A DNA stretch of 40,294 nucleotides from NCBI GenBank assembly GCA_014381465.1, contig JACNLP010000032.1:1-40294 (forward strand). The letters are read 5' to 3'. The stretch comes from Flavobacteriales bacterium. GTDB taxonomy: Bacteria; Bacteroidota; Bacteroidia; Flavobacteriales; BACL11. The notes beneath the pieces were generated by a model, which worked only from the letters and a program-made list of their open reading frames with translations, was not told the origin of the DNA and did not search any database. A program made the position numbers and the translations under genes. This document shows, one piece after another, positions 79 to 3,599 of the stretch. Numbering within the stretch: position 1 is the stretch's first letter; every line of letters starts with the position of its first letter.

Positions 79-230
79 TCCTATCACTATTTTTATCTTT
101 TTCCTGTCATTTTGATAGGATTAATCGTGCTTTTATGATAGGAAAAACATTTTGCGTATCATATAATTTTAATTTGCGTATCATTTTTTAGGCATTTTGA
201 TATGTATTTCATACTTTTGTGATACGCAAA
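79..230. promoter_or_regulatory. Cluster of six TGATA-core operator-like sites upstream of the Fic-domain gene
   Basis: Six short sites share a TGATA core in both orientations: TCCTATCA at 79-86, TGATAGGA at 113-120 and 136-143, TTTGCGTATCA at 151-161 and 173-183, and TGATACGCAAA at 220-230. The last site directly follows a TACTTTTG box (212-219) that matches the Bacteroidota -7 consensus TAnnTTTG, so a bound protein would cover the expected transcription start. The downstream protein begins with a winged-helix-like region, so autoregulation is a reasonable inference, but binding is not shown. Confidence 0.5.
212..219 (+). promoter_or_regulatory. -7 box TACTTTTG of the Fic-domain gene
   Basis: TACTTTTG fits the Bacteroidota sigma-factor -7 motif TAnnTTTG and lies 18 bases before the ATG at 238. 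No clear TTG -33 element sits at the usual distance. The box abuts an operator-like site at 220-230. Confidence 0.45.
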
Positions 231-237
231 AAAGAAA

Positions 238-1188
238 ATGACTACTCAATTAAGTAAAAATCAAATATTAATAACTGAATTATTAAAGAGAGAATCCTTG
301 CTTTCTTCTTCTGAAATTCATGATCAATTGAATTTTAGTAATTCTCTTTTAACCACTAAAAGAATGCTCTCTAATTTGGTAAGTAAAAAATTAATCTCCA
401 CCTCAGGAAAAGGAAGAGGAACAAAATATAGCATTAGTAAGAGTTATAATTTATTCTTCCCTATAAATTTGGAGGAATATTACTTAACAGATGTAGATGA
501 GAGAAAAATAATAACTCATTTTAACTTATCACTAATGAAGGATGTTTTGCAAAACGCTCCTATATTTAACAAACAAGAAATTGAGGAATTATATAGCCTA
601 CAAAGCACTTATCAGAAAAACATAAGTGACTTAAGCAAAAATGAATACAACAAAGAGTTAGAGCGATTGGCAATTGACCTGAGTTGGAAATCTTCACAAA
701 TAGAAGGAAACACCTATTCTTTATTAGAAACAGAACGACTCTTAAAAGAAAAAGAAACTGCCTCTGGAAAAAAGAAAGATGAGGCGGTAATGCTATTAAA
801 TCATAAAGACGCATTGGATTTTATAGTTGAAAATCCTAATTATGCAATTCCACTAAGCATCTCAAAAATTGAAGACATCCATAGCATACTCATAAAAGAA
901 TTAGCAGTGGACAAAAATATCAGAAAAAGAAGAGTAGGTATTTCTGGCACCAATTACAAACCATTGGATAACGAATATCAAATAAGAGAAGCTTTGGAAA
1001 ATTGTTGTAATTTAGTAAATAATAAAAGTTGTGTCTTTGAAAAAACATTACTTGCTTTATTGTTAATTTCCTACATTCAACCTTTTAATGATGGAAATAA
1101 AAGAACTGCTCGAATTATTAGTAATGCTATCTTAATTAATAATAATTACTGTCCTCTTTCCTTCAGAACGGTAGATTCTATTGAATAA
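238..1188 (+). CDS. Winged-helix/Fic-domain protein with Gln in place of the catalytic His, C-terminally truncated
   Basis: Residues 1-70 look like a winged-helix DNA-binding domain and residues about 140-316 are a Fic domain. Fic enzymes usually transfer AMP or another nucleotide-derived group to protein hydroxyls. The core motif is at 281-292 (QPFNDGNKRTAR), where canonical Fic proteins have HPFxxGNxR; the catalytic His is therefore Gln281. The class II autoinhibitory motif (S/T)xxxE(G/N) is present as S152-xxx-E156-G157. Both features suggest either a catalytically dead regulator or a variant chemistry. The frame stops at TAA 1186-1188, but family-like sequence continues in another frame to 1289, so the gene is truncated or mis-assembled. 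The ATG at 238 follows a plausible -7 box and operator-like repeats. Its native target is unknown. Confidence 0.8.
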   Translation: MTTQLSKNQILITELLKRESLLSSSEIHDQLNFSNSLLTTKRMLSNLVSKKLISTSGKGRGTKYSISKSYNLFFPINLEEYYLTDVDERKIITHFNLSLMKDVLQNAPIFNKQEIEELYSLQSTYQKNISDLSKNEYNKELERLAIDLSWKSSQIEGNTYSLLETERLLKEKETASGKKKDEAVMLLNHKDALDFIVENPNYAIPLSISKIEDIHSILIKELAVDKNIRKRRVGISGTNYKPLDNEYQIREALENCCNLVNNKSCVFEKTLLALLLISYIQPFNDGNKRTARIISNAILINNNYCPLSFRTVDSIE

Positions 1189-1196
1189 AAAAAAAA

Positions 1197-1975: not shown

Positions 1976-3599
1976 GCAAAACAACACTAACAATACTTCC
2001 TTTTTCTGAACTGTCAATTAATAATATTCCTTTATTTAATGTTGTGAATTCCTTGCACAAATCCAAGCCTAATCCCAAACCCTTGGATTGATGATTACAG
2101 CCAAATCCGCACCCTTTATCAATAATATCAATTTGTGTTTTATTTTCAGAGTTAAAAATAGCTATTACAATTTCAGAATTTTCAGGAGAATATTTAATGG
2201 CATTGTGCAAGATGTTTCTAATCACAATTCGGATTGTATTTTCATCTGCAAATGCAATCCAATCATCTGAAAAATCTTTACTAATTTTTATTTTCTTTTC
2301 AGTTATTTGCGTTTTTAGTAATTGAATTGTTTCTTCAATCATTTCATTTAAGTCTAAGATCTTAGGATGCAACTCAATCTTATCCAAATGCTCTGCCGAC
2401 CAGCTAAATAAAGTATCAAATTCCAATAATAGATTAGTTGATCCTTGTTCTATCTTTTGCAAGTTTTCTATTTTTTTACTTTGAGACAACATTTTAATAG
2501 AGGCAATCACTCCTCTTAAATCATGTGAAATAATAGAAAATAACCGTTCTTTTGCTTTATTTGATTCGGTTAGTTTCCTGTTTAATTTAGCGGTTTTTCT
2601 TATAAAATAAATAACAACAACAAAAAGTAAAAAGAATGTAATGATGATAATATTTCTTATTTTTTTCTCTTGTCTTAGGGTTATTATTTTCTTTTCTGTT
2701 TCAAATAATTTCTTTTGTTTTTCCAGCTCTTGCAAAGCAATCCTATTGTGTGGGTGCAAATATTGTTTTTTTAAGGAATCGGCTATTGACATAAATTTAT
2801 AGGCTTTTTCAAAATCTTTTTTAGCCAAATAAACCTGAGAATAATTATAAGTGTAATGATGATTTACCTCATCATCATTTAAAAGCGGGGCAACTTCTTC
2901 TGATTTTTTACAATGATATAAGGCACTATCAATTTCACCCTCTTTTAAAAAGAATCCTACTAAGGTTGCATGATATTGAAAATTTTGCAACAAAGCATTC
3001 GGAAGCTTTGGCATTACCATTTTTGCTGAATCCAAATATAGTTTTGTTACTTCTGGAGAATTTCCTCTACTAATGTAATAATAGTTGGCTAAATATTGAT
3101 TATTTTGTATTTGTTTTGCAAAACGAATTCCTTCTTTAAACCTTCCTTTTACTTTATAAAAAATAAATAATACACGATTATTATTACAAGTTAAAGCGAG
3201 TTGCTCCGCCTTATCAAAATAAATATAAGCCGTTTTTTGGTCTTGTGTTTTTATGTACAATAAACCTAAATTTAAGTTTAAATCTGCCTTTAAACTATCA
3301 TATTCCTCATACTCATTTAACAATAATAATCCTTTAGTATAAGTCAAAGCAGCTTCATCCCACTTTCCATAAGTTTGATACCTTACTCCTAAGTTATTGT
3401 AAGATGAAGCAAGCTCAGGAATTTCAGAGGCATTATTAAAAACAGCAATAGCATCTTGCAATACAATTATTGCACTATCTCTGTTCCCATTTTGGTTATG
3501 TTTTTCAGATAATTCCCAAAAGTGATTTGCATTTTTTGTTTGCGATAAAAGGACTAAGGGCATTAGCAATAAAAGTAATACAGTTTTTATTTTCCACAC
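1965..3599 (-). CDS. TPR-containing membrane sensor histidine kinase
   Basis: The 544-residue protein has a signal peptide (residues 1-20), TPR-like helical repeats at about 25-290 expected in the periplasm, a coiled stretch, and a transmembrane helix at about 315-335. The kinase core follows: phospho-acceptor His359 in SHDLRG, the N box around Asn466 (NILHNAIKY), G1 box DKGCGFG at 494-500, and G2 box GLGLGL at 507-512. All catalytic boxes are intact. It probably phosphorylates the convergent LytTR regulator whose end it overlaps by 11 bp; that pairing is inferred from position only. A TAACTTTG box lies just upstream of the ATG. The input signal cannot be read from the sequence. Confidence 0.88.
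   Translation of the reverse strand: MWKIKTVLLLLLMPLVLLSQTKNANHFWELSEKHNQNGNRDSAIIVLQDAIAVFNNASEIPELASSYNNLGVRYQTYGKWDEAALTYTKGLLLLNEYEEYDSLKADLNLNLGLLYIKTQDQKTAYIYFDKAEQLALTCNNNRVLFIFYKVKGRFKEGIRFAKQIQNNQYLANYYYISRGNSPEVTKLYLDSAKMVMPKLPNALLQNFQYHATLVGFFLKEGEIDSALYHCKKSEEVAPLLNDDEVNHHYTYNYSQVYLAKKDFEKAYKFMSIADSLKKQYLHPHNRIALQELEKQKKLFETEKKIITLRQEKKIRNIIIITFFLLFVVVIYFIRKTAKLNRKLTESNKAKERLFSIISHDLRGVIASIKMLSQSKKIENLQKIEQGSTNLLLEFDTLFSWSAEHLDKIELHPKILDLNEMIEETIQLLKTQITEKKIKISKDFSDDWIAFADENTIRIVIRNILHNAIKYSPENSEIVIAIFNSENKTQIDIIDKGCGFGCNHQSKGLGLGLDLCKEFTTLNKGILLIDSSEKGSIVSVVLPNS

What the first reader, a model, noticed from the sequence alone, without database searches (positions are those of the whole stretch)
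79..230. Six TGATA-core sites form an operator cluster over the Fic gene promoter
Two kinds of site share TGATA: TGATAGGA (79-86 inverted, 113-120, 136-143) and TGATACGCAAA (151-161 and 173-183 inverted, 220-230). The last directly follows a TACTTTTG -7 box and would cover the transcription start. Such density just upstream of a winged-helix protein suggests cooperative autoregulation.
Basis: partly seen in the sequence, partly recalled or inferred. Interest (0 to 1): 0.5.

Follow-up and report, generated by a model that had tools for sequence, protein, structure and literature searches.

The report
Double operator of a Fic gene
The repeated DNA words in front of this bacterial gene are two back-to-back landing pads for a DNA-binding Fic-family protein, one matching the gene's own protein and one matching a different branch of the same family, which makes it a good natural example of how a self-controlling gene changes its DNA address.

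Summary
They form two separate four-site operators in tandem. The proximal one (151-230) has sites TGATACGC, TGATACGC, TGATATGT, TGATACGC, spaced exactly as in the promoters of relatives of the gene (inverted-inverted-direct-direct; 22, 14, 22). TGATACGCAAA occurs nowhere else in the 1.98-Mb genome. Of 108 distinct relatives' promoters, 95 carry this architecture with the core TGAGC. A few carry other cores, changed together at all sites, and residues 37, 38 and 41 at the start of the predicted recognition helix change with them. This is strong comparative evidence for an autoregulatory operator read by the protein's own winged helix. The last site abuts the -7 box, so repression is most likely; binding was not tested. 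The distal operator (79-143, TGATAGGA) has the sequence and tighter spacing of another subfamily, which has no member in this genome. It is a relic or a target of such a relative. The Fic active-site His is Gln in 107 of 107 aligned relatives. The window's gene is frame-broken near its end. Self-repression by an HTH-Fic protein is known (CccR, PMC9755527): a new variant of a known kind.

The parts
79..86 (-). distal operator, site I1 (TGATAGGA)
   Evidence: exact match
   Evidence: 23 bases from I1, 3-base gap to D1
113..120 (+). distal operator, site D1 (TGATAGGA)
   Evidence: exact match
128..135 (+). TGCTTTTA, weak -7-like sequence before distal D2 (2 mismatches to TANNTTTG)
   Evidence: read from sequence
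136..143 (+). distal operator, site D2 (TGATAGGA)
   Evidence: exact match
151..161 (-). proximal operator, site I1 (TGATACGCAAA)
   Evidence: only 3 copies in the genome, all here
173..183 (-). proximal operator, site I2 (TGATACGCAAA)
   Evidence: 22 bases from I1
   Evidence: gap 14 from I2, 22 bases before D2: the family geometry
212..219 (+). TACTTTTG, Bacteroidota-type -7 box (TAnnTTTG), ends just before D2
   Evidence: exact; same place within 1 mismatch in 64 of 98 promoters
220..230 (+). proximal operator, site D2 (TGATACGCAAA), expected over the transcription start, 18 bases before ATG
238..1188 (+). wHTH-Fic gene; frame ends early at the A-run 1187-1196
   Evidence: Pfam Fic 8.9e-13; family C-terminus continues in another frame at 1191-1286, E 3.9e-11
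256..435 (+). predicted winged helix, residues 7-66
   Evidence: AlphaFold2 model, mean pLDDT 88.2
346..384 (+). predicted recognition helix, residues 37-49; residues 37, 38, 41 follow the operator core
1078..1113 (+). Fic motif QPFNDGNKRTAR, Gln at the catalytic His position
   Evidence: Q281 in 107 of 107 aligned members

Best explanation
The proximal operator (151-230) is the autoregulatory operator of the adjacent wHTH-Fic gene. Two protein units, or two dimers, bind a palindromic array of four half-sites (I1-22-I2-14-D1-22-D2) through the N-terminal winged helix. The last half-site lies on the start region just downstream of the -7 box, so bound protein shuts its own promoter. In this lineage the half-site changed from the family's TGAGC to TGATAC at all four places (TGATAT at D1), together with the start of the recognition helix (residues 37-38 Leu-Leu; Tyr-Ala is commonest in relatives). 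The distal operator (79-143, TGATAGGA) belongs by sequence and spacing to a second subfamily (recognition helix P-T-L-N-R). Here it is either the remains of a lost gene or a site through which such a relative would silence this promoter. Shown: sites, geometry, conservation, covariation. Inferred: binding, repression, oligomeric state, role of the distal operator.
For: TGATACGCAAA is unique to this promoter in the genome. 108 distinct relatives' promoters: 95 of 108 have consensus TGAGC; geometry exactly 22/14/22 in 77 of the 102 read in the 14-gap class, the window's proximal operator included; most D2 sites start 10-30 bases before ATG. With an unrestricted word search, 89 of 108 promoters score 16-18 of 18 against 9 of 324 shuffles. 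Variant cores appear at several sites of the same promoter: window TGATA 4 of 4; L024 and L103 TGTCC 4 of 4 each; L037 TGATAGGA 4 of 4; L040 3 of 4. Within-promoter agreement beats all 5000 re-pairings, both for 98 promoters and for the 12 whose D2 is not TGAGC. Residue 38 is Ala in 87 of 94 TGAGC users and 0 of 8 variants, Fisher 2.9e-8; residue 37 Tyr 76 of 94 v 0 of 8; residue 41 Lys 94 of 94 v 5 of 8. These residues start a predicted recognition helix. A -7 box within 1 mismatch ends at D2 in 64 of 98. In 395 class genomes I counted 28 TGAGC four-site palindromes in the listing; 21 lie at a family gene (coordinates) and 3 more at decayed ones. TGATAGG operators with a 3-5 base centre gap precede L037, L040 and L041 and a truncated wHTH gene in L185.
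Against: No binding or expression data. The site reader maximises agreement between sites, which inflates agreement figures. Fisher and permutation tests treat related sequences as independent. 4 of 28 palindromes have no family gene found: one precedes an HTH-HipA pair, three have nothing recognisable, one of these near a contig end. L038, L091 and L114 fit no class clearly, and L129, a viral-contig relative, was only read by eye. The window gene is frame-broken near its end, so it may be decaying or misassembled. The window lies at a contig end, so what is upstream of base 1 is unknown.
Confidence: 0.85

Rival explanations
1. The distal TGATAGGA operator is a relic: an earlier resident Fic gene of the TLNR subfamily was lost and only its operator stayed when the present operator plus gene came to lie behind it.
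For: No second family member in the genome. Its -7-like sequence and its I2 site are imperfect. Operators outlive decayed genes elsewhere: L137, L138, L139, L142 and L185.
Against: No trace of a second gene between the operators, which are 7 bases apart. Tandem operators elsewhere keep a preferred helical phase, which the window's shares.
Confidence: 0.45
2. The distal operator works: it is bound by the same protein with lower affinity, or by an incoming TLNR relative, and acts together with the proximal operator.
For: 10 of 97 promoters have a second operator upstream (0 of 1940 shuffles). The offsets to the proximal one are 6, 17, 17, 18, 18, 28, 28, 30, 30, 31, clustered by about one helical turn (p 0.0025 against uniform 5-60); the window is at 18.
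Against: The window's is the only heterotypic case among the 10 and the only one with a 3-base centre gap and 23-base spacing. The offsets include related loci. No TLNR protein is in this genome.
Confidence: 0.4
3. The sites are bound by an unrelated regulator or are a chance cluster.
For: One TGAGC four-site palindrome precedes an HTH-HipA pair, so an unrelated HTH protein may use a similar array.
Against: The array travels with this gene family across many genera, and its core changes with the gene's own predicted recognition helix.
Confidence: 0.07

Closest known systems
CccR of Yersinia pseudotuberculosis (PMC9755527; abstract and passages seen)
   Same: Fic protein with an HTH that represses its own gene by binding palindromes near -35 and -10; the inhibitory Ser/Glu pair is also present
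   Different: HTH is C-terminal; catalytic His present and it AMPylates FtsZ; secreted by T6SS. Here the wHTH is N-terminal, Gln replaces His, and the operator has four half-sites at fixed spacing
CbFic2 of Coxiella burnetii (PMC10628234; passages seen)
   Same: Fic with a DNA-binding winged helix and an N-terminal inhibitory helix
   Different: C-terminal wHTH, canonical HPFDDGNGR motif, and the authors discuss non-specific DNA binding
HTH-fic fusions proposed as regulators of fic (PMC2686095; passages seen)
   Same: Predicts that fused HTH domains may regulate fic expression, by analogy with Phd-Doc
   Different: The passages seen name no operator, no specificity code and no tandem operators
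Clade D2 of the Doc subfamily with His replaced by Gln (PMC4454073; passages seen)
   Same: Motif Qx[F/Y]x[D/E][G/V]NKR matches the window's QPFNDGNKR
   Different: Described as usually single-domain; DNA binding is not mentioned in the passages seen

Membership tests
Fic/Doc (PF02661) | Fic domain above curated cut-off | tested here: met
   49.3 bits, cut-off 24; Foldseek best hits human FICD, BT_2513 and SoFic
Fic/Doc (PF02661) | catalytic His of HxFx(D/E)GNxR | tested here: not met
   Gln in 107 of 107 aligned members
[quoted passage not shown] class described in the abstract of PMC3667792) | tested here: met
   SSQIEG; S152, E156, G157 in 107 of 107
Self-repressing HTH-Fic proteins (CccR-like) | HTH or winged helix in the protein | tested here: met
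   model H7-18, H24-31, H37-49, E53-56, E63-66; weak Penicillinase_R match
Self-repressing HTH-Fic proteins (CccR-like) | palindromic sites over own promoter | tested here: met
Self-repressing HTH-Fic proteins (CccR-like) | binding and repression | not testable with these tools
   needs gel shift and reporter
Doc clade D2 (His to Gln) | Qx[FY]x[DE][GV]NKR | tested here: met
   QPFNDGNKR at residues 281-289
Doc clade D2 (His to Gln) | usually single-domain protein | tested here: not met
   N-terminal winged helix
Two-gene type II toxin-antitoxin operon | conserved partner gene next to the toxin | tested here: not met
   no recurrent neighbour in 508 flanking ORFs of 80 loci; largest cluster 8 loci at scattered positions

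The most novel reading that the evidence does not exclude
A large solitary family of Fic proteins with the catalytic His replaced by Gln has turned the Fic fold into a dedicated self-controlling transcription factor. Operator word and recognition helix switch together, and heterotypic tandem operators, as in this window, let one lineage silence another, much like immunity groups of phages.
Probability: 0.2. Interest if true: 0.7.

Novelty: new variant of a known kind. Interest (0 to 1): 0.5.

Why it matters
It gives a natural protein-DNA specificity series: about a hundred homologous regulators, one architecture, several apparently separate changes of operator word, each accompanied by changes at two or three residues at the start of the predicted recognition helix. 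That makes a recognition code directly testable. It also gives a first function to propose for Fic proteins whose catalytic His is Gln: DNA-bound self-regulation, not the usual chemistry. The tandem operators raise the question of cross-silencing between related solitary genes.

Tried and rejected
One six-site cooperative cluster: rejected, because the two site types fall into two complete four-site sets with different spacing.

Regulon: TGATACGCAAA sites elsewhere in the genome were sought; there are none. TGATAGG pairs in 395 class genomes gave mostly chance matches: 58 of 395 genomes had one, with controls often similar. I followed three plausible places: L185 held a truncated wHTH gene, while L186 and L187 held no family gene.

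Synteny in the genus: the neighbouring kinase gene is found only in this genome, 1 of 4, so no empty-site comparison was possible. The family is in 1 of 52 genomes of the same taxonomic family.

Conserved neighbours (an operon or defence-island reading): none recurrent. PADLOC models SoFic and PDC-S04 match only at Fic-domain level.

More TLNR members: a phylum search with L040 at E up to 1e-80 gave 7 of 395 genomes. The best, L146/L184, is a TGAGC user, so no new TLNR member came from it.

RNA hairpin reading of the inverted repeats: not folded. Set aside because the inverted arms lie upstream of the -7 box and would not be transcribed from it.

Literature: searches found no paper on this operator or on an operator of a Bacteroidota Fic gene. 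The library holds only open-licence papers.

Rows dropped before counts: of 41 matching genomes, three short or weak matches (G403, G422, G318) were not analysed further. 118 loci became 108 distinct promoters of at least 110 bases; 98 of these scored at least 23 for the tests; 97 had enough upstream DNA. Eight variants entered the residue test; other unclear readings (L038, L091, L104, L114, L117) were left out.

A first script read minus-strand loci in the wrong orientation; it was redone with orientation found by tblastn, and only the later results are used.

Full report
WHAT IS THERE. The six reported sites are exact. Two more complete them: TCCTGTCA at 102-109 and TGATATGT at 198-205. Read together they are two four-site operators. 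Each has two inverted sites (I1, I2) followed by two direct sites (D1, D2). The proximal one has spacing 22, gap 14, spacing 22. The distal one has 23, gap 3, 23. TACTTTTG at 212-219, a Bacteroidota-type -7 box (motif recalled), ends directly before the proximal D2, and the ATG follows 18 bases after the start of D2.

CHANCE. TGATACGCAAA occurs only at these three places in the 1,976,464-base genome. TGATAGGA is common, with 69 copies, but the spaced pair occurs only here in this genome.

THE GENE. 238-1188 encodes a winged helix plus a Fic domain. The model (mean pLDDT 88.2) has helices 7-18, 24-31 and 37-49 and a two-strand wing, then the Fic helices. The nearest solved folds are human FICD and BT_2513. 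The catalytic His of the Fic motif is Gln in 107 of 107 aligned members, and the inhibitory S/E/G residues are kept in 107 of 107. The window's frame stops at an A-run (1187-1196), and the family's C-terminus goes on in another frame. This may be decay or a sequence error.

RELATIVES. It stands alone: no recurrent neighbour was seen.

THE OPERATOR IS A FAMILY TRAIT. Of 108 distinct promoters, 95 have consensus TGAGC. In the 14-gap class 77 of 102 have exactly 22/14/22 spacing, the window's proximal operator included. An unrestricted word search scores 16-18 of 18 in 89 of 108 promoters against 9 of 324 shuffles. A -7 box within one mismatch ends at D2 in 64 of 98. A spaced TGAGC pattern run over 395 class genomes gave, by my count of its listing, 28 four-site palindromes. 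By coordinates 21 sit at family genes; 3 more sit at decayed family genes; one precedes an HTH-HipA pair; for three no gene was recognised.

SPECIFICITY CHANGES TOGETHER WITH THE PROTEIN. Variant promoters keep the geometry but change the word at several sites at once: TGATAC here, TGTCC in L024 and L103, TGACC in L033 and L036 (in L033 read one base out of register and in L036 one site unlike). Agreement within promoters exceeded all 5000 re-pairings. Residue 38 is Ala in 87 of 94 TGAGC users and 0 of 8 variants (Fisher 2.9e-8; 87 of 94 against 0 of 5 without the TLNR proteins, 1.1e-5). Residue 37 is Tyr in 76 of 94 against 0 of 8, and residue 41 Lys in 94 of 94 against 5 of 8. These residues begin the predicted recognition helix. 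In a tree of the Fic part alone, the window protein lies in a supported branch of 92 rows, 86 of them TGAGC users. The TGTCC pair groups with two TGAGC users (93/79), L033 with one (99/79) and L036 with L039 (100/99), so the word has probably changed several times.

THE DISTAL OPERATOR. TGATAGG operators with a centre gap of 3-5 precede the genes of L037, L040 and L041, whose recognition helix reads P-T-L-N-R, and a truncated wHTH gene in L185. L040 lacks a recognisable I2. The window's distal operator matches this class, yet no such protein is in the genome. Tandem operators occur in 10 of 97 promoters (0 of 1940 shuffles). The offset to the proximal operator clusters at about 6, 17-18 and 28-31 bases, one helical turn apart (p 0.0025); the window is at 18. 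Only the window's pair is of mixed type. So it may be a relic or a working site for a relative; the data do not decide.

COMPARISON. Kinch et al. (PMC2686095, passages) proposed that HTH domains fused to fic may regulate fic. CccR (PMC9755527, passages) shows self-repression through palindromes. CbFic2 (PMC10628234, passages) binds DNA. A His-to-Gln Doc clade is described in PMC4454073 (passages). None of the passages seen describes this operator, its specificity changes or mixed tandem operators. Verdict: a new variant of a known kind.

Noticed in passing
window 1187-1196: Run of ten A at which the Fic reading frame stops early; the family's C-terminal stretch continues in another frame.
   Followed up: partly
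L021 2747-3835: A second, SoFic-type Fic gene (Fic_N, Fic, SoFic-like_C) near a family member, with its own repeats of the type TGATATATCA and a -7 box before it.
   Followed up: no
L134 1997-2063 and 2158-3731: A TGAGC four-site palindrome upstream of an HTH plus HipA pair: an unrelated toxin-antitoxin-like pair with the same array.
   Followed up: partly
L144 2007 and 2235-3286: A TGAGC array match upstream of a two-gene pair whose second protein is a Fic.
   Followed up: no
L137, L138, L139, L142: TGAGC arrays in front of decayed family genes: operators outlasting their genes.
   Followed up: yes
L129 4001: A relative on a viral contig with repeats TGAGGAG 22 bases apart and helix Y-A-T-I-G-R: possibly a further specificity.
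   Followed up: no
L020: A family member with an internal TAG near the start of the recognition helix.
   Followed up: no
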